Position numbers and translations under genes: made by a program. Of a stretch of DNA of 64,000 nucleotides, positions 1,320-52,905 are shown one piece after another. Positions within the stretch are counted from its first letter, which is position 1; each line of letters begins with the position of its first letter. Source of the stretch: Thermothelomyces thermophilus ATCC 42464 (taxonomy: Eukaryota; Ascomycota; Sordariomycetes; Sordariales; Chaetomiaceae); NCBI RefSeq assembly GCF_000226095.1, contig NC_016478.1, positions 1,540,001-1,604,000 of the forward strand, given 5' to 3'. The notes beneath the pieces are model-generated. The model ran no database searches, was not told where the DNA came from, and saw nothing but the letters and a program-made list of their open reading frames with translations.

Positions 1320-4300
1320 TTAGAAGGCTGCGCCTCCCAAGCCCTCGCCCGCAATGTTCTTCAGACTTCTCTCGCTCAGGTCGCTCTTCAGCTCGAACCC
1401 TTTGCTCTCTCTCTCCAGCTTATCCCAGATGCGCAGGCTCTTGCGCAACTTGTCCTGCTTGACCCGCAGCTCTTCGCGCAGCCGCTCCTCCTCGTCGCGC
1501 ATGCGCTTGTGGTGCGGGTCCATCTCGACGGGCAGTGCCGTCGGATCAATCTTGCCGCCCGGGATGATGGGCGGCATGGTGTTGAGGAGGCTCTGGGCGA
1601 GCGATGGGCGTGCGCTGTGCGAGGCGAGCATGTGACCCGATGGGCCGGTCGGCGGGTTGAATGGCTTGGCGCCGCCGAGCGAGGGGGAGGCGGAGGCGGA
1701 GGCGGAGGCGGAGGAGGCGGACTGCGCTCTGGGCCCGGTCGGAATGCCGCCAACACTGGACCCGCCTTGGGAGATGGTCGGTGAGCCGGTTTGGCTGCCG
1801 CCGCCAGAGATGCTATGGCGAGGCGGGCCGGCTGACCAGCTACCCCTGGCACCACCGCGACCCGTGAAGCTCGGGGCACGAGGCGGAACATAGCCGCGAG
1901 GTCCGGCCGGGGGCACTGTGGGGCTTGTGGCACCATGGCGAGAAGGTCCGCTCGGACCAGAAGGGAGATGGCGAGGTGAAGGGGCAGCTTGAGGCGCTAC
2001 TGGTGATGTGAAGTTCCTCGCTGCGGCAGGCCCGGTGGGCGGTGCCCTAAGAGCTGCCGGACCCTTCGGAGGAGACTTCACCGGAGTCGGGTTGGCATCT
2101 GCTGCGGGGGCTTTTGGAACGGTTTGACTGGTCGCAGGTGGCTGCGACGGTTGCGGAGGCGGAGCCGCTGGCTTCGGGGTGTCGCGAGCCGGCGGGGCTG
2201 CGCTTGTGGGCGTTGGCGCGTTCGATACGTGAGACCGTGCAGCTGGGGACTGGGGTACGGACCGGTCGTCCCGGCGAACAGAGGCTGGCCGGGGCGAGGA
2301 CCTACCCGATGCAGACCGTGAGGGCAATGCCGACGAGTGAACGGAGTCTCGGAGCGGTGGCGGTGACGGTCGGCGATACGAAGGTCCGACGTAGCGATCA
2401 TCGCGGTCGCGGTCCCGCCAGTCTGGGCTCCGAGAGCGGGGACGATACGTGCCTCCCCCACGCGGGCCCGGCGGCGGTGAGCGTCTGGGTGGTGATCGGT
2501 CTCGGTGAACCGGCAACCGGTCTCTGTCGAACGGCGAGCGTGACCTCCGCCTGTTATCCCTGATCTCAAACTGCCTCCGCATCGGCGACCTTGGCCGTTC
2601 ATCTCTGTCATCCCTCCTATCATCCCACCTATCGTCCCACCTGTCGTCCTTCCTGTCGTCTCGCCTGTCAACCCTCCTATCATCCCACCTCTCATCTCTC
2701 CTGTCGTCTCGTCTGTCATCTCTTCGGCCATCTCTTCGGTCATCTCTCCTGTCATCCCACCGATCGTCTCTCCTGTCATCTCGCCTGTCATCCCTTCTGT
2801 CGTCTCTCCTGTCGTCTCTCCTATCGTCTCGCCTGTCATCTCTCCTATCATCCCTCCTGTCATCCCGCCTGTCATCCCGCCTGTCCAGACCGCGATCGTC
2901 TCGACGTGGGGACACGAAGCGGGGAGGAGTGCGTCTGATGGGACTCCTCCTTGGCGAGCTGCGGCGAGGAGGGCTCCGGGCTCGACTACGGCTGCGCCGC
3001 CAACTCTCGCCGCCGATCCTCTCTCGAGATCTCTCGCGCCTGAAGCGGTCGGCGCTGCGCGATCGGCGGCGCGGAGATCTGGCAGGGACGTAGCTATCGC
3101 TGGTCACGGGCGGGGGGGACCGGGCCCGGTCCCTCAAGGGGCTTCGAACGCGGGGTGGTGGTGATCGGTCACGGTCGCGATTGAAGGGCCGGTACGATTC
3201 GCCGGCCCCGTAACGGCGGACCTCTCCATCTTCATACCTATTGGTGCCAAGGTTAGCAACCACGTCAAACCGAAGCCGAGAAGACGAATTCAACACGTAA
3301 GAAACAGGGCGCTCAGGCACGCGCTGCGCCAAGCGAGTGCGATCTGGAATGGGAATGGAATTAACTCCTGTAAGAAGCGGAGATGACCGTCGCTGAGGAT
3401 TGAAATCGGCAGAAATTTCCGGCAGCCGAGCAAAGCCATCATTCGGAGCGCGGATGATATGCGCAGCGAAAGGAAGGGTAATTCGCTCGCTCAAAGGTCG
3501 CTCCGCCCCGGGCATCTGATGTGAACGAATTTCGGGCGACGGCATGTGTGTCTTCGGAGAAACCGTCCGACTGGTAAGGCAGAAAGCTCGCGTGGTTTTT
3601 GTTGATGGCGAGAATTTGCTCGCCTGTGACATCGACAAGAATGACGACAGGTGGTGTTTGGCTGGCCCATGGGTTCCACGAAATTGTTGCGTCCAAACCT
3701 CCCCAGAAAAACAGCACCTGCCCAAGCTTCGGGTGAAGGCTTCAGAACTCTTTGGGAGTGGCGGCTTTGTCCCCAAGTCAGGCTCCTTCCGAAAGCCCCG
3801 AGACTTAACATTTCCATCCATCCGAGCTTTATTTTGTTGGGATTGCGAGAAGTCACCACAACCCCGCTTAGACCAAGTGTTCACGCCGCTTGAATGGGTT
3901 TTGGGGACGCCCAACTTTGACGGAAGTTGGTCTTGTCTTGCGAGTTGTTTGCGGGGACTGGCCGGATGATGCGCGAAGGTGACTCGTTTGTAACAGGTCG
4001 GAAGTCTGGCATAGGTTGCGAGCAGCCCCTAAAAGTCCGGCCGTCTTCCTCGTACTCATTGGAACGAGCAGTGCCGCTGTCTGCGCTGCTGTTGGCAGAG
4101 CGGTCATAGTGTGCAGCTCGCGAACCATCAAGGTCAAGAACTGGAAGCATCTCTGCGCCCTTTCCGGCTTTCGAACCCGCTTGGTCCGCCAGTATCGCCT
4201 GAGAAGCATCGTTTGCCACCTCAAGAAATCCACAAGCTCGTTCGAAACCAGACCAGGACAAGCGTCGAACTCAGAGCTGGGCGTCCGGAATTGAGGCAAT

Positions 4301-4854
4301 TCCACGCTGCCCTGGGTATCGCCCGCCAAATCCACAGGCGTCCAGACGTTGCGCAGTGGACTTCTATTCCTGGGCCGATAGTCTTCCCAAGTTCGGGCTC
4401 TGTCGAGTTTGCGAGTTTCGGTCAGGTTGCTCATCAGACGTTCCCGGGCAGCCTTCCGGTCGTGGGTAGGGTAGTTCCAGTAATAGAACACCAGAGCCGG
4501 GCAAAGTTTGGTCGCCAGCAGGAGTTCCGGCTTCTGACGCCAAGAATCAAGTCGCTCGGGGTCATAGGCCATATCCAACATGGCGGCCAGCTGAGCGTAG
4601 GACAGGACCTTGAAGAGAGTGGTGCCGTAAGAGCGTAGCCACCGTGTCGTCCACCTGGGATTGGCGCTTTGTTTCTCCTGGATTACGCCTTTCCAGGCCT
4701 CGACACGCGAGTTGAGCTCTTCTTTGTTTAGCCTTGACTCGTCGACCGATGGCGCGAACCTCGCCAGGTAAGCCTGCTTCAACTCGAGCCAAGTATCGAG
4801 TGTATCGGAGTCGCGCCGCAGAGGCAGGTCGAACGGGGATTCGATTGTCGCCAT
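1320..4854 (-). CDS. Arg/Ser/Asp-rich (SR-type) nuclear protein locus, exon structure unresolved
   Basis: I do not recognise the family beyond an SR-repetitive-matrix-like composition. The frame opens at an ATG at 4854 (MATIESPFDLPLRR) and reads about 200 plausible residues to about 4250, where coding potential moves to another frame that runs to about 3885. A good intron at 3740-3884 (GTGAAC donor, GAAG acceptor) then leads to LHPKLGQVLFFWGGLDATI. The long downstream frame runs from about 3237 to the stop at 1320. It probably begins after an acceptor at 3238, preceded by a GCTAAC branch site. This part contains RS/SPPP dipeptides, an uninterrupted run of RDDR units (plus-strand about 2600-2890), a Pro/Ala/Ser linker, and a charged C-terminal helix (HHKRMRDEEERLREELR, ending GLGGAAF). 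It could be one gene with four or more exons, or two adjacent genes. The frame jump near 4200-4260 could be a 50-bp intron with a weak GTTTCG donor, or a real frameshift. A splicing or RNA-related role is inference from composition alone. Confidence 0.55.
2595..2890 (-). repeat. Coding minisatellite: 12-bp units encoding R-D-D-R
   Basis: The plus strand shows a tandem run of variants of CTGTCATCTCTC / CTATCGTCTCGC. On the minus strand these read as more than 20 consecutive RDDR-type tetrapeptides, with occasional W, G, V, K or E substitutions. The array stays in frame throughout. The unit is mostly varied at wobble positions, so the array is probably old, although some neighbouring units are nearly identical. 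Confidence 0.85.
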
Positions 4855-6294
4855 TGTTGCCTCTCGAACTCTGTCGACAAAGGTGGCATAAAGTCGGCGG
4901 GTGCGAGATGAAGGCGATAGCTGCAGAGATCAACCTGCCCCAAGCCCCGGGAGTGTAAACGTCGCGGGTGTCCGCGCGATGCAGAACAAGATCGCGTCTC
5001 GTGAGGCTTGAGAGGACGGTCCACGAAGCGGTCGAAGCTCGTCGAGGAAGTCAAGAATTGAAGGCCGGTCGGTCGAGAGGTGGTTATTGCCCCAGAGATG
5101 GGGGCCAAGAAACCTTTGCATGAGACGGCGTCTGCCGATACGTGCGTGCGATGCCGATACGGGCTTCTCAGTTCGCCGCTAGCAGCATTATGCATGCCCT
5201 TCGAGACGAAGCGGGATTCGGTTTCTCGCGATGTCGTTGTCCCTCTTGCGTCTCGGCAACCCGACAAAACCTTGGAAAGCCTCCTTCCCATGTGCCGACA
5301 GGGACATGCACGTCCGACTGCACAAGCAACCCCTTACACCCTCCATCGCCCCTACTTCATCCCCAGCTCCCATCCTCATCCATGGCGACGCCCAAACCGT
5401 ACCGTAAGATCTGAGAGAGAGCCGAGCAAGAAAAAGAACTCCACTGACCTTCTACTTCGATCCATAATCCTGAATCTGAGTCCGATGTTGTGTCGTTAAA
5501 ACAATATGGAGGGCTCGGCCCAGTGATTAGACGTTAGAGGGAGGTCGGATTAAGTGCGAGGCTGAAGGCATGTCTTCCTTTCCGTACAGGCACGGAGTTG
5601 TCGGTTTCCAAAAGTTCAAATCCCAGGACCCACCCATGATTTCAAGCGCTTGACGCGCCATCCCCTGCAGACGCGGGTGGCGTGGCACGTGCGTCAGGTA
5701 ATGAGTTACGGAACCCGCAGTGCATCCCGTATCAGTATTCCTGAACAAGGATGTATGTAATCCGTAGAGTACGTCCGTACTACATAGTATACTCCGCACA
5801 TACAATACTTCGTGGGGTAATCCATTTCTGTACGCAGTCTTTCCGTACCATTAATGAACAACTTCAGCAGATTAATCGCAACTACGAACTACGCAGTATC
5901 CGTACTCAGAAGCGAAATCAGACCTCTTCACGCTTGCGCGTTGAACTAGCCGCTACATATCTGTACCCATTTGTAACGGTATTACGCGAGCATGTGCAGC
6001 GCGTTGCCTCTTACGCTTAACATCAGAAACTGCAGCAGGAGCTCACAAGCAAGTATTGTACAGCAACCGCGCTCGGCATTGACATGAATGAGCAGCCGAG
6101 TCAACTCACCCATGTTTCGCCCGCCCAAGAATGTCAATGGCAAGAAAATCTCCATATCTGACCCTTGAATGATCCTTCCCCCCCTCCCTCCCCGGGACAC
6201 CTCTCTCTCTCCTCTCCCCTTCCGGCACGCCGTTGTAACGCCGCGCAATGCCCCGACCAATCTCTTCCCCATCTCAACATGCCCGCGCGTCGTT
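4855..6294. other. Intergenic region between the SR-rich locus and hda-1
   Basis: About 1.4 kb with no supportable gene. It holds the promoter and 5' leader of the minus-strand SR-rich locus and the 3' UTR of hda-1. At 5750-5910 it is rich in short GTAC/CCGTA words (for example around 5751-5800) that recur in other gaps of this window. The short frames here lack family signatures and credible codon use. Confidence 0.55.
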
Positions 6295-8904
6295 CTACCT
6301 CCCCCCACTCTCCTCCTCTTCGGTCTCTTCCCCCTCGTCTCTCCCGCCTTCGTCCGACGTCACCCTCTCCATGATGAACTGCTGCACGTCCGCGAAATAT
6401 TCCGCCATCATCGGCGTGAGGCCGTTGACCTGCGCGCGGATGACGTTGCCGAACCGGCGCTTCATCACCTTGCGCGTGAGGTCCGGGTCGGACCAGCACG
6501 CGTGGTCGTTGGCCACGTACACCTGCGAGTGCTCCTTGTACCACGACGACAGATCGCTGTCCACGTCCGACTTGACCGGTCGCAGGCTGCCGTTGACGAA
6601 GTTGACCACGCCCGCGACCCGGGACTTGACGTCTACTACCGAGAGGGAGCATAAGTGTTAGCCAAGGGTCAGGGCTCAAGGTTAAGTTCGCGGGGTTTGG
6701 GCCCCCCATATAAAGAATGAGCGGGGTAGAGCGGGAGACTTACGTCGATTGATGAGCAGGACCTTGATTCCAAGGTAGGCGTTGCCTACGCCCATCAGGA
6801 AGATGTCTTCGACCGAGTCGTACAGCTGCAGGTAGTTGTCCCAGATATAGCACATTAGTTCTTGGACTTGGGCTTGGAGCGTGCGTTCGTCGGCGCGTGG
6901 GATGAAGGCATCAGTGTCCTACACGGGAGGATTAGCATGGCGATTTCTCCTTCTGTTCCTCCCTTCCACTCCCCGTTCTCTTTTTCCCGCTTCTACTTTG
7001 GTTTCACCCGTATTCCTTTCTCCATAATGGGCATACGTACCTCTGGGTGCGTGATGTAGTGAGGCACGTTGACATCGATGACTCCGAAGCCTTTCTCAAT
7101 GGCCCAGTCAATGTAACGCGTGACGCCGTCCGTCTGTTTCCGGTTCAGATGACTTTTTCTTAATAACAGGTCGGCGGGGATATGTAGGTACTCACCACCC
7201 ATGCGTTGTGAGCCTCCACCGTGTTGTCCAGCGGATCAGGCTGGGCATGCAGTTCCGGCCTGGGAACAGGGTCATCAGTCGAGCCTCAACTACTTGAACG
7301 ACCATCACTTACGGGTCATGGACGATGACCAGGATCCTGCGAGCTGACTGGATCCCCCTAGTCACCAGCACCTGGTTCTCGAAAGACTTGAATAGTACGT
7401 CTCGCTGGATATACAACGGCAGCATGCCGTGCTTCTCGGACAAGACCTGGCGTTGCGCCCGGCGCACCACATCGTGCAGACGCGACGACTCCTGCGCCTG
7501 CATCTCCTGGACGTCGACGATGCCGGCGCGCATGCACTCCCAGTACGGCGCCTGATACGCCTGGACCTTGGCCAGCACCTTGGCCGCCTCGCGGCTGATC
7601 TTGGGGATCTCCATCTTCGGGGGCGGCTCCCCCATGAGCGTCCGGGCGACGGCCAGCGCCGATTTCGAGATGGCCTCGAGGTCGTAGCCGCCCTCGAGAC
7701 AGACCGCCACCTTGCCGCCGGCGAGCGACATGAGCATGTGCGTCATGTGGGCGTAGCAGCTGGGCGTGACGAAGCAGGCTCCCAGCTCGTCGCCGGCGGC
7801 GGCGTCGAAGCCGGCCGAGATGATGACCAGGTCCGGGTTGAACTCGTGGGCGATGGGCATGACGATCTTCTGGAAGGCCGCCATATACTCACCGTCGCCC
7901 ATCCCCTGGTCGTGCCAGCCGATGTTGACGTTCTTGCCTAGGCCGGGCCCGGCACCGCAGTGCTCGAGCCCGCCGTCGGGCGTCATCGGGTTATCGGGCT
8001 TGCCGGGGTAGAACTCGCCGTTGCGGTAGACGTGGAGAGAAATGTAGAGGATATTGGGGTCGTCGTAGAAGAGGTTCTGGATGCCGTTGCCGTGGTGCAC
8101 GTCCCAGTCCAAGATTAGAATCTTTCGGCAGAGGTCTGGGTAGTCGGCCTGGCAGATTTTAGCAGCAATGGGAACGTTGTTAAAGAGACAGAACCCCATG
8201 GGCGCGTCAAACTCGGCGTGATGGCCCGGCGGGCGGATGATGGCGAACGCGTTCTTCACGACGCCGGCAACCACGCTTTTGCACGTCTCGATGGCGCCGC
8301 CGGCCGAGATCAGCGACGCCTCGTATGTCATACTGCCGACATAGAGCGAGTCCCTGCCTTGATCCATCCGGGTGGACAGCTCGCGAAGCTCTTGGGTTGA
8401 TTTACGGGACAGAGCTTCAACCCATAGGAAGTGCCCAGGGTGGTGAACCATGCAGATTTCCTCCTTGGTTGCTTCCCTCGCCGGGATTCGCCACATGTAC
8501 TTGGTTGGCTCGGTCTGGATAATGCGGATGAGCTCGGCGTCGGAGCCAGTGAACACCAGACCATTCTTCTTGAAGGTTCTCATGATGTACTCGATCCGCG
8601 ACGGATCCTCTGGGTGATGCGGGTTAGGCCCAAAGTCGGCATTGGCATGTAGCTTCATGCGGTCATCGTAGCAGCAACCAGTCGGCAGCAGGCCACGTCG
8701 CCGCAGGTGCTCGGGGTAAGCTGTCGGGTCAGAGTCCTGGTCTTCATCCCGGCTCATGCCGCTGGTGCCTTGGCCGTTGGTGGCATCCGGGATTGAACTC
8801 TCCCCCGTCGTAGTTACATCTAGAAAACCGTTGGGAGCCGAAGAGCCATCAGTCATGCGGCGGTCCTCACCATCCATGACGACATCATTCTCGATGATGT
8901 CCAT
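6295..8904 (-). CDS. hda-1: Class II histone deacetylase HDA-1 (HDAC + Arb2 domains)
   Basis: A zinc-dependent lysine deacetylase of the yeast Hda1 / fission yeast Clr3 type, acting on nucleosomal histones in silent chromatin. Exons on the minus strand are 8904-7313, 7259-7196, 7133-7041, 6918-6744 and 6635-6295, giving 754 residues. The donors are GTAAGT, GTGAGT, GTACGT and GTAAGT. The catalytic domain (about residues 75-420) shows RPPGHHAEFDAPMGFCLFNN with His228-His229, the DWDVHHGNG zinc-ligand block (Asp266, Asp268, His270) and the EGGYD motif. The C-terminal third (about 490-735: LVIVHDP-type start, YIWDNYLQLYDS, KSRVAGVVNFVNGSLRP) is the Arb2 domain typical of fungal class II enzymes. 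The N-terminus is acidic and disordered, and the tail is Glu-rich. In Neurospora HDA-1 works with HP1 and the chromodomain protein CDP-2. A chromodomain gene lies 8.6 kb away at 17,516. All catalytic residues I could check are present. Confidence 0.95.
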
Positions 8905-49602: not shown

Positions 49603-52600
49603 ATGTCAGACCCTCGAAAGTACACGGTCGGCTGGATTTGTGCGATCACCACCGAGGCCGTAGCAGCCCGGGCCTTCCTCGACGAAGAACACGACGGCCC
49701 TTCCACCGTCGCAAAGCACGACAACAATAGCTATGTCTTAGGCAGGATCGGCGCTCACAATGTCGTCATTGCCGTCCTCCCCGATGCGGAATACGGCATA
49801 GCGTCCGCGGCAGCAGTGGCCCGGGACATGCTCCACAGCTTCCCGAACGTGCGCATCGGATTGATGGTCGGCATCGGAGGCGGGGCGCCTAGCCCGAAGC
49901 GGGATATCCGACTCGGGGACGTCGTAGTCAGCAGCGGCAATGCCGGGGAAAGCGGCGTGTTCCAATACGACTATGGCAAGACGATCCAGAACCAGTCGTT
50001 TCAAGAGACTGCATTCTTGGACCAACCACCCATGGTCCTGCGGACGGCCGTGAGCACGCTCAGAGGCACATACGAAATGAAAGGACACCAGCTGGTGGAC
50101 AACGTGAACGAGGCATTGAAGAAGATTAAGAGGCGAAACAAGTACACGCGGCCTCCTCCGGAAAGCGACAGGCTGTACAGGCCCGACTTTGTCCATCCTG
50201 CTCACTCGACCGACCGCTGCGATGTCACGTGCGGCAACGATGAGGCAAACCTGGTGATCCGGGGCGAACGAGACGAAGAGGATGACGACCCGGCGATTCA
50301 CTACGGCCTGATTGCTAGCGGGAACCAGCTGATGAAAGATGCGCGGCTCCGGGACAAGTTGGCGGACGACAAGGGCGTTCTCTGCTTCGAGATGGAAGCC
50401 GCCGGTCTGATGAACCACTTCCCATGCTTGGTCATCCGCGGCATCTGCGACTACTCGGACTCGCACAAGAACAAGGAGTGGCAGGGCTTTGCGGCCATGA
50501 TGGCGGCGGCGTATGCCAAGGATCTTCTGCATCAGATCCCCGTCAACAAGATCATAGAAGAAAGGCGGATCAGTGAAGTACTCGGTTCGAGTTAGTAGCG
50601 CACGTCTGATTTTTGTGATATATATATAATCTGACAGTAAGCAGTTCGGGATGATTTGGAACGTTTGCATCAGACGGCGGAAAAGACCAGAGCTATGGTC
50701 GTGGCTCCTCAAATCGCGGAGTGGCTTTCCCCTCCTGACTCATCCACAAACTTCAACCGAGCGAGGAAGGAGTGGCACGAGGGGTCCGGGCAATGGTTCC
50801 TCAATAGCACGGCCTTCAATGAGTGGAAGCAAGGATCACGTCGCCATCTCTGGCTTCAAGGCTTAGCAGGGTGTGGCAAAACCATCCTCAGTGCGACGAT
50901 AGTAGATCATCTTCGGAAGAACGATTGCCTCGTCCTCGATTTCTATTTCGACTTCAACGACACCGCGAAACAGAATGTTGACGGCATGTTACGTTCCCTC
51001 TTGTTTCAGCTCTACAAGTTTGGGTCTCACCCCGAACAACTCGACAACCTATACCATTCACACCTCAACGGCCAGAGGCAGCCAGACACGCCGACTTTGA
51101 CGAACTGTCCCCGTACGATGATCAAAGGCTCGAAAGCGACCTTCGTTATTCTGGACGCTTTAGATGAGTGTACAGAGAGAAGAGAGCTCCTTGGGTGGCT
51201 GGAGGAATTCTCGAAATCCGACCCGAGTCACGTTCGCCTGCTCGCCACTGGACGACCAGAAGAAGAGTTTCTGAGCTTCATCCCTAGCTGGCTCGGAAAA
51301 GAGCAATGTTTGTCGCTTGATAAGAGCGCGGTCAATGCCGATATACGGTCCTATGTTGCGGCGAAACTTGAACGCAGCCCTGATTTCGTGAGCAAGGCAC
51401 TGTCTGAGGATCTCCTCGAACAGATTCGCAACAAAGTCGGAAACGGGGCTGACGGCATGTCAGTTTCACCCTTAGCCATCGATAAGCCAAACCGATTATC
51501 TGACATCTAGTATAGGTTCAGATGGGCCGCATGCCAGTTAGCTAGTCTCGCGGCATGCATGAGTCCCCGCGCCATCGAAAAAGCTCTCGAGAGTTTGCCC
51601 CGAGATCTCGATGAAACGTACCGTCGCATGCTTCGAAGTATCCCAGCAGACATTGAGAAGGATGCCATACGTCTCCTTCAATTTCTCGTTCACACCGAGC
51701 GGCCATTAACAATTTCGGAGGCCATAGAAGTGATTGCCACGCAGACGGACGAGGAACCACGGGGCTTCGATCCGAAGCGGAGATTGTTCCGTGAGGCCGA
51801 TGTTCTACGGTACTGCCCTGGTTTGGTGTCGGTCATTGAGACATGGTACTCTAAGGAACTCCATCTTGCACACTTCTCGGTCAAGGAGTACCTTCTCAAA
51901 CAACAGCAATTTGACCTCACCTGCGCCAGCATTGCCATCACAAGAACCTTTTTAAGTTACCTTACAGATATCGAGTGTGATTCCTCAAAGAATATCCGGC
52001 AAGTTTTTCCGATGGCAGCGTATGCGGCAGACTCCTGGATGGGCTATGCAATTTTCGCACAGTCTTCGGAAAGCGTTGTCCACGAAATACTCGAGTTCTT
52101 ACAAGATGATTCTGCTTTTGAGCGATGGTTAAACGTTTCTAAATTTTTCTATCACTGGAAGGGAGATCTAGGCCCGTCCCAAGCATCGAAGCTCTACTAT
52201 TTATGCCTGGGTGGTCTCCCAGCGGTTGCGCGACGTTTACTAGACATGGGAGCCGACGTCAATGCCGAGGGCGGGACTCTCGACAGGCTTCTCCATGCTG
52301 CCGCATTCAGCGGCAACAGAGACCTCGTGCAACTCCTTCTTGACAATGGCGCCGATATCAACGCGCAGGGTGGCATATACGGCACCGCTCTCCATGCTGC
52401 CGCATTCAGCGGCAACAGAGACCTCGTGCAACTCCTTCTTGACAATGGCGCCGATATCAACGCGCAAGGTGGCGAATACGGCACCGCTCTCCAAGCTGCT
52501 TCATCTCGTGGCTACAGGGAAATCGTGCAACTCCTTCTTGACAACGGTGCCGATATCAACGCGCAGGGTGGCATATATGGTACCGTTCTCAAAGCTGCCA

Positions 52601-52905
52601 TTTATGGAGGCGTCGAGATTGGCTATAACGGAGGCCATATGGAGATTATACAACTCCTGCTAGACAAGGGCGCCAACGTTAATGCCCAAGGCCACGAACA
52701 TAGTATCGCTCTCGAAATCGTAGAGAAAGGCATCGGAACTGGCTTCGATGGAGGCTATATGGAGATTATACAACTCCTGCTAGACAAGGGCGCCAATGTA
52801 AATGCGCAAGGTGGCGAATACGGCACTACTCTCCAAGCTCTCATCGAGAGAGGCTGTCGAGATATCGTGCAACTCCTACGAGGCATGGTTGCCGACGATG
52901 TATAG
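49603..52905 (+). CDS. NLR-like receptor: PNP_UDP phosphorylase-like domain, NACHT, ankyrin repeats
   Basis: A fungal STAND NTPase of the class thought to act in non-self recognition. Exons are 49,603-50,590, 50,645-51,458 and 51,516-52,905, giving 1063 residues. The two short introns (54 and 57 bp; donors GTTAGT and GTCAGT, acceptors AAGCAG and TATAG) restore continuous sequence ([32 protein letters not shown]). Residues 1-320 form a nucleoside-phosphorylase-like N-terminal domain ([67 protein letters not shown]). The NACHT has Walker A GLAGCGKT (402-409), Walker B ILDALDEC and RLLATGRPE, followed by the typical winged-helix-like segment ([28 protein letters not shown]). About seven C-terminal ankyrin repeats (about 825-1060) end the protein, two of them with an extra 8-residue insert. 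Repeats 2 and 3 are nearly identical in DNA. Confidence 0.93.
52276..52590 (+). repeat. 99-bp tandem ankyrin units with identical cores
   Basis: The 77-bp cores at 52,291-52,367 and 52,390-52,466 are identical base for base at a 99-bp period. A third unit (52,489 onwards) matches closely in its second half (GTGCAACTCCTTCTTGACAA). Two further, 21-24 bp longer units at about 52,590-52,830 share another near-identical block (GGAGATTATACAACTCCTGC). Such high internal identity points to recent duplication or concerted evolution. Confidence 0.92.

What the first reader, a model, noticed from the sequence alone, without database searches (positions are those of the whole stretch)
49603..52905. NLR-like PNP_UDP-NACHT-ankyrin receptor with ankyrin units identical at DNA level
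The 77-bp cores at 52,291 and 52,390 are identical, including silent sites, while repeats outside this block have diverged. In fungal NLRs, high internal repeat identity is the known mark of recognition domains that change number and sequence quickly between strains. This gene is therefore a candidate polymorphic non-self sensor. The intact Walker A and B and all three exons argue that it is active.
Basis: partly seen in the sequence, partly recalled or inferred. Interest (0 to 1): 0.72.

Follow-up and report, generated by a model that had tools for sequence, protein, structure and literature searches.

The report
Fungal immune receptor with reshuffled repeats
This is an apparently intact fungal NOD-like receptor whose sensor end is built of ankyrin repeats, some recently copied from one another; receptors of this design with repeats that vary between strains have already been described in a related fungus, so this is a good further example, not a new kind of system.

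Summary
A three-exon gene (49603-52905, 1063 aa) encodes PNP_UDP_1 - NACHT (NPHP3_N) - ankyrin. Two adjacent 99-bp periods agree at 96 of 99 bases, with an exact 78-bp tract (52290/52389); 0 of 20,000 codon redraws reach it. "Repeats outside this block have diverged" is only partly right: another pair shares an exact 40 bp, and linkers between repeats alternate between two types, a mosaic that points to recombination within the array (PHI 1 of 2000 shuffles). One DNA search found no second copy in the genome, and 0 of 17 NLR/PNP loci and 0 of 8 ankyrin stretches examined have such an array. The same architecture, with repeat-number polymorphism and positive selection, is published for Podospora anserina (PMC4986451), so the kind is known. 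Strain variation, the decisive test, could not be run. Best reading: a non-self-sensing NLR whose PNP effector, probably a nucleosidase, arrests or kills the cell (inferred).

The parts
49603..52905 (+). PNP_UDP-NACHT-ankyrin NLR gene, three exons, 1063 aa
   Evidence: Spliced in-frame CDS; Pfam
49603..50590 (+). Exon 1: PNP/nucleosidase-like effector domain (aa 1-329); conserved E265 (50395-50397) and D283 (50449-50451)
   Evidence: Pfam PNP_UDP_1 aa 12-294; E/D aligned to the EME..D stretch of MTA/SAH nucleosidases and invariant in the 4 own-genome PNP domains aligned, one of them partial
50591..50644 (+). Intron 1 (54 nt, phase 1), between effector and NACHT exons
   Evidence: the model of paralog L033 has a phase-1 intron at the corresponding place
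50645..51458 (+). Exon 2: linker and NACHT; Walker A 50860-50883, Walker B 51142-51168
   Evidence: NPHP3_N aa 376-533, NACHT 397-537; motif positions
51459..51515 (+). Intron 2 (57 nt)
51516..52905 (+). Exon 3: region after NACHT, a degenerate first ankyrin unit, ankyrin array U1-U6
52270..52902 (+). Ankyrin units U1-U6, starting at 52270, 52369, 52468, 52567, 52690, 52810; U4 and U5 carry a 7-8 residue insertion
   Evidence: ankyrin fold of the model
52290..52367 (+). First copy of the exact 78-bp tract
52389..52466 (+). Second copy of the exact 78-bp tract, offset 99
52637..52676 (+). First copy of the exact 40-bp tract (U4)
52757..52796 (+). Second copy of the exact 40-bp tract (U5), offset 120
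52351..52379 (+). Linker of I type (U1/U2 junction), repeated at 52549-52577 (U3/U4 junction)
   Evidence: 29-bp exact match, offset 198
52462..52484 (+). Linker of E type (U2/U3 junction), repeated at 52804-52826 (U5/U6 junction)
   Evidence: 23-bp exact match, offset 342

Best explanation
A fungal NOD-like (STAND) receptor. Shown by sequence: an N-terminal PNP/nucleosidase-like effector, a NACHT switch with intact Walker motifs, and a C-terminal stack of six ankyrin units after one degenerate unit. Shown statistically: two adjacent units are a recent tandem copy, and the pattern of linkers is best explained by exchange between non-adjacent units, so the array changes by recombination inside the locus. 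Inferred: the ankyrin stack binds a non-self or altered-self protein; binding lets NACHT exchange nucleotide and oligomerise; clustered PNP domains become active and hydrolyse a nucleotide, most likely ATP, arresting or killing the cell. Inferred and untested: repeat number and linker type differ between strains, so strains differ in what they sense.
For: Open gene and domains. 78-bp and 40-bp exact tracts, each 0 of 20,000 under the codon null. Two linker types, CAG..ATA at junctions 1/2 and 3/4 and CAA..GAA at 2/3 and 5/6; 97 of 351 informative site pairs incompatible, PHI 1 of 2000 shuffles for U1-U5 and 5 of 2000 for U1-U6. One DNA search found no second genomic copy of the array, so exchange is more likely within the locus. 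Some bacterial relatives of the PNP domain are fused to conflict-system or STAND modules: VMAP in 2 of 3 actinobacterial proteins scanned, NB-ARC-TPR in Hyalangium; PADLOC model 'Effector, PN-superfamily' E 3.2e-14. E265 and D283 conserved. The same architecture is polymorphic in Podospora: Pa_2_8180 8 to >16 repeats, Pa_3_8560 7 to >14 (PMC4986451 section 17). ATP cleavage by the PNP effector of Detocs is described in PMC11249213 (passages).
Against: dN below dS in 15 of 15 unit pairs. The array is short (TRF 3.1 copies) and misses the published high-internal-conservation cut-off. Enrichment at designed-ankyrin positions only p = 0.07. No strain, expression or biochemical data. The best PDB sequence hit is an MTA/SAH-type nucleosidase (E 1.6e-4), so ATP as substrate is not shown; one of 3 actinobacterial PNP relatives scanned (L062) has no other Pfam domain. 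The PNP fold model failed (pLDDT 35).
Confidence: 0.7

Rival explanations
1. A sensor of bacteria, viruses or internal damage whose array is stable within the species; the near-identical units are one recent tandem duplication without an allorecognition role.
For: Only one unit pair is near-identical and one more is partly so; dN below dS; the array is short; the species was reported without NLR clusters (PMC12258605 section 10).
Against: One duplication does not explain the alternating linkers or the 23-bp and 29-bp tracts between non-adjacent units.
Confidence: 0.22
2. Assembly error: one 99-bp unit was added by misjoining.
For: Short-read assemblies omit or create near-identical NLR repeats (PMC12222747 passages).
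Against: The two periods differ at three positions and the sequence on either side of them differs; the similar block is only 310 bp; if this is M. thermophila ATCC 42464, its genome was sequenced telomere to telomere (PMC4761134 passages).
Confidence: 0.04
3. No recent copying: strong selection for an ideal ankyrin sequence plus codon bias keeps the units alike.
For: Ankyrin units share structural constraint; in the unit register U1/U2 dS is 0.22, not zero.
Against: 0 of 20,000 codon redraws reach 78 bp; codons are the same for all 25 whole codons of the tract, log10 P -8.2 to -11.5 by choice of background; in 8 other ankyrin stretches of this genome the longest exact direct repeat is 18 bp.
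Confidence: 0.02
4. The PNP domain is an MTA/SAH-type nucleosidase acting on small signalling metabolites, not an ATP-depleting enzyme. (A rival on the effector step only; compatible with the rest.)
For: The best PDB matches are MTA/SAH nucleosidases; PMC4986451 predicts this for PNP_UDP domains of Podospora NLRs (passage).
Against: A PADLOC defence-effector model matches at E 3.2e-14, though this profile score cannot be compared directly with the single-sequence PDB scores; PNP_UDP domains that hydrolyse ATP in immunity are described (PMC11249213, PMC10197012, PMC12881547, passages).
Confidence: 0.3

Closest known systems
Podospora anserina Pa_3_8560 and Pa_2_8180 (PNP-UDP/NACHT/ANK; PMC4986451)
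   Same: Same three-part architecture, ankyrin units alike to each other; same order, Sordariales, if the species assignment here holds
   Different: Theirs have 7 to >16 repeats with measured polymorphism and, for Pa_3_8560, positive selection; here a shorter array that misses the >85% over 100 aa rule, with no strain data
Chaetomium globosum gi116208038 (PNP_UDP/NACHT/ANK; PMC4986451)
   Same: Same architecture; by recall the same family, Chaetomiaceae
   Different: 21 highly conserved ankyrin repeats against six units plus a degenerate one here
HET-E/HET-D (HNWD) receptors of P. anserina
   Same: NLRs with internally similar sensor repeats, thought to change by recombination (PMC12222747 passages)
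   Different: WD40 repeats instead of ankyrin; HET effector domain (recalled); allorecognition function shown
Detocs and other bacterial immune PNP effectors
   Same: PNP domain as effector in a defence context (PMC11249213 passages)
   Different: Different sensor and switch; the bacterial PNPs with long matches found here (7 of 10 hits) are 23-30% identical; substrate here untested; Detocs itself was not compared by sequence

Membership tests
Fungal NLR (STAND) receptor | Effector - NACHT/NB-ARC - superstructure repeats, in this order | tested here: met
   Pfam scan
Fungal NLR (STAND) receptor | Intact Walker A and B | tested here: met
   Motifs at aa 402 and 496; full-length NPHP3_N match
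NLR with high internal conservation (Dyrka et al. 2014) | >85% identity over at least 100 aa of repeats | tested here: not met
   Best register, three periods: 32, 25 and 24 of 33 identical, mean 82% over 99 aa; only the first pair exceeds 85%. The authors' own program was not run.
NLR with high internal conservation (Dyrka et al. 2014) | Repeat-number polymorphism between strains | not testable with these tools
NLR with high internal conservation (Dyrka et al. 2014) | Positive selection at concave-face repeat positions | tested here: inconclusive
   Within one allele: dN below dS in 15 of 15 pairs; designed-variable positions p = 0.07 (positions recalled)
Concerted evolution of repeats | Exchange between repeats of the locus | tested here: met
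   PHI 1/2000 (U1-5) and 5/2000 (U1-6); exact tracts between non-adjacent units; small, hand-trimmed sample
Concerted evolution of repeats | Exchange between loci of a family | tested here: not met
   The 666-base array matched only itself in G000 (that search warns that very common words are skipped)
Immune ATP nucleosidase (PNP) | PNP domain with catalytic Glu and Asp | tested here: met
   E265 and D283 aligned to MTA/SAH nucleosidases, invariant in the 4 own-genome domains aligned; their catalytic role is recalled
Immune ATP nucleosidase (PNP) | Cleaves ATP to adenine and ribose-5'-triphosphate | not testable with these tools
   Needs biochemistry
Heterokaryon incompatibility (het) gene | Allele-dependent rejection between strains | not testable with these tools
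   Needs fusion or pairing assays

The most novel reading that the evidence does not exclude
In a genome with few NLRs (inferred), some in AT-rich, RIP-like surroundings, this single-copy locus diversifies alone, by swapping inter-repeat linkers (the beta-hairpin tips, I versus E at ankyrin position 3) in a short array whose similar block (310 bp) stays below the length that repeat-induced point mutation attacks (about 400 bp in Neurospora, recalled): a one-gene, linker-switching route to new recognition without exchange within a gene family.
Probability: 0.15. Interest if true: 0.5.

Novelty: new member of a known kind. Interest (0 to 1): 0.28.

Why it matters
If strains differ in this array, the species gains a defined candidate non-self recognition locus. 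If the species is T. thermophilus, tools exist to test it (a ku80 deletion strain and an insertion mutant pool: PMC13170357 passages). It also offers a small array, with no second copy found in the genome, in which linker exchange could be followed without exchange between family members. The PNP effector connects it to PNP domains used in bacterial defence.

Tried and rejected
Protein constraint and codon bias as sole cause of identity: rejected by the null.

RIP as cause of unit differences or gene decay: indices of gene and array look ordinary (TpA/ApT 0.60 and 0.70; substrate index 1.21 and 1.46).

Exchange of the array with other genes: no match elsewhere in one search. Recent conversion of the PNP exon with paralog L033: aa identity falls from 76, 45 and 69% (aa 1-110, 111-220, 221-329) to 19-33% beyond aa 330, but synonymous sites of the exon are near saturation (dS 1.77), so the step may be an old effector swap or stronger constraint on the effector.

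Relatives in viral contigs: 9 pattern matches, 0 confirmed. PNP structure prediction from a single sequence failed (pLDDT 35), so no fold search was made with it. Literature searches for NLRs or strain variation in this species showed no such study, but their lists were capped (20 of 3,686; 5 of 5; 10 of 7,545 papers) and one search returned mainly unrelated papers; this is weak evidence of absence.

Of 74 Ank_2 matches in the genome, 8 stretches were fetched as controls. Of 24 listed window ORFs of 280 aa or more (many overlapping), 10 were scanned with Pfam. In one search, 4 own-genome PNP domains were aligned; the strongest PNP match of the genome (L006) was not. In some searches the 7-8 residue insertions of U4 and U5 were cut out by hand. 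One search had U4 aligned off by one; one search replaces it.

Full report
WHERE IT IS. The window lies on contig C7 (1,540,001-1,604,000) of a 38,744,216-base, seven-contig genome. No call names the genome itself. Of 10 large window ORFs scanned, 7 have Pfam matches, all ordinary: Mug190-like SMP/C2 protein, Tsr1, SART-1, histone deacetylase, chromo domain, IMS-family polymerase, HLH. Among the NACHT, NPHP3_N, NB-ARC and PNP matches listed, only this gene's lie in the window. PMC12258605 (section 10) lists this species among those without NLR clusters; a passage gives a Sordariales mean of 56 NLRs, while I found 16 NPHP3_N and 2 NB-ARC matches here, some partial (lower bounds), hence 'few NLRs' is my inference.

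THE GENE. Spliced as it encodes 1063 aa with PNP_UDP_1, NPHP3_N/NACHT and ankyrin matches. Both introns carry a CTGAC motif near the acceptor. Exon 1 ends shortly after the effector domain, and my model of paralog L033 has a phase-1 intron at the corresponding place. No RNA evidence was available.

THE ARRAY. Six units follow a degenerate one. In the register that starts at 52290 the first two periods are 96/99 nt and 32/33 aa identical; against the third they are 83 and 80 of 99 nt. In the unit register, codons are identical for 25 of 28 shared residues of U1/U2, with dS 0.22 and dN 0.11. Units 4 and 5 share 40 exact bases at offset 120. The three differences between the first two periods (CAG/CAA and ATA/GAA) are not private: the CAG..ATA form recurs at the junction of units 3/4 and the CAA..GAA form at the junction of units 5/6. 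A recombination or conversion tract that swapped the linker is simpler than three linked point changes (inference). The site-compatibility test agrees (PHI 1 of 2000 shuffles for U1-U5, 5 of 2000 for U1-U6), with the caution that a few short, hand-trimmed units are a small sample. The switched codon is ankyrin position 3 (register by comparison with the recalled consensus), in the beta-hairpin/loop region that PMC4986451 counts to the variable binding face (section 17).

IS IT UNUSUAL HERE? Of 17 fetched 9.9-kb loci with NLR or PNP matches, 0 have a tandem array of period 60 or more at TRF score 50. Of 26 short search loci, the 3 with such an array all contain this one. Of 19 loci (the 17 plus L044 and L045, shorter, L044 overlapping L041), 2 have an exact direct repeat of 16 bp or more at 60-500 bp distance, of 17 and 18 bp. 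Of 8 other ankyrin stretches, 1 has exact repeats of 14 bp or more, at most 18 bp. The array's DNA had no second match in the genome.

The array does not reach the published high-internal-conservation threshold (82% over 99 aa against more than 85% over at least 100 aa). dN is below dS in 15 of 15 unit pairs. Enrichment of variable residues at designed-ankyrin variable positions (recalled from DARPin design) is p = 0.07. Strain comparison was not possible.

THE EFFECTOR. The PNP domain carries the EME and D residues that align with MTA/SAH nucleosidases, invariant among the four own-genome PNP domains aligned (one partial). Of 6 proteins scanned, 2 have PNP-VMAP, 1 Fic-PNP, 1 PNP-AAA, 1 PNP-NB-ARC-TPR and 1 PNP alone. 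Two PADLOC models match, at E 3.2e-14 and 9.6e-13. That the substrate is ATP is inference from passages on Detocs and on PNP_UDP domains (PMC11249213, PMC10197012, PMC12881547); Rousset et al. 2023 was seen only as a reference entry.

THE SENSOR FOLD. The model of 257 residues encoded from 52132 on (no alignment) has mean pLDDT 69.9, with ten-residue blocks of 72-94 between residues 51 and 180. The best solved matches are ankyrin and designed ankyrin proteins (4qfv, 4o60, 6ndz; TM by query length 0.57-0.72). The PNP model was unusable.

PLACE IN THE LITERATURE. PMC4986451 (passages, sections 13 and 17) describes two P. anserina PNP-UDP/NACHT/ANK genes with repeat-number polymorphism among the reference and five wild isolates, five positions with signs of positive selection in one of them, and a C. 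globosum protein of the same architecture with 21 repeats. The present gene is a further, milder member. What is modestly new here is the alternating-linker mosaic in a short array without a second genomic copy found.

VERDICT. Real feature, right class, sensible hypothesis, already established kind; the polymorphism claim remains to be tested.

Noticed in passing
L033 (G000:C3:1160500-1170400), about 3392-7326: Paralog with a PNP domain 63% identical to this gene's (208 of 328) but only 19-33% identical beyond the effector; effector on its own exon. Possible old effector swap or uneven constraint.
   Followed up: partly
L060 (Hyalangium versicolor), 3872-7150: Bacterial protein with PNP - NB-ARC - TPR, the same plan as PNP-type fungal NLRs.
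   Followed up: partly
L054-L057 (Actinoplanes, Virgisporangium): PNP domain fused to VMAP-M0 and VMAP-C (vWA-MoxR associated proteins) in L054 and L056; L055 and L057 judged by eye only.
   Followed up: partly
L058 (Myxococcales MAG), 3131-4732: Fic domain fused to a PNP domain.
   Followed up: no
L037 and L032 (G000:C5:2.10 Mb and C1:0.26 Mb): NACHT-like matches in AT-rich stretches with RIP-like indices over 9.9 kb (TpA/ApT 1.47 and 1.26); the match in L037 holds a TAG. The match cores have TpA/ApT 0.50 and 0.64, so the signal lies around them.
   Followed up: partly
window 52567-52809: Ankyrin units 4 and 5 carry a 7-8 residue glycine-rich insertion (GYNGG / GFDGG) between their helices.
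   Followed up: no
window 2605-2885: Tandem array of 12/60-bp period inside a long minus-strand ORF (1320-3914) with no Pfam match at 1e-5.
   Followed up: no
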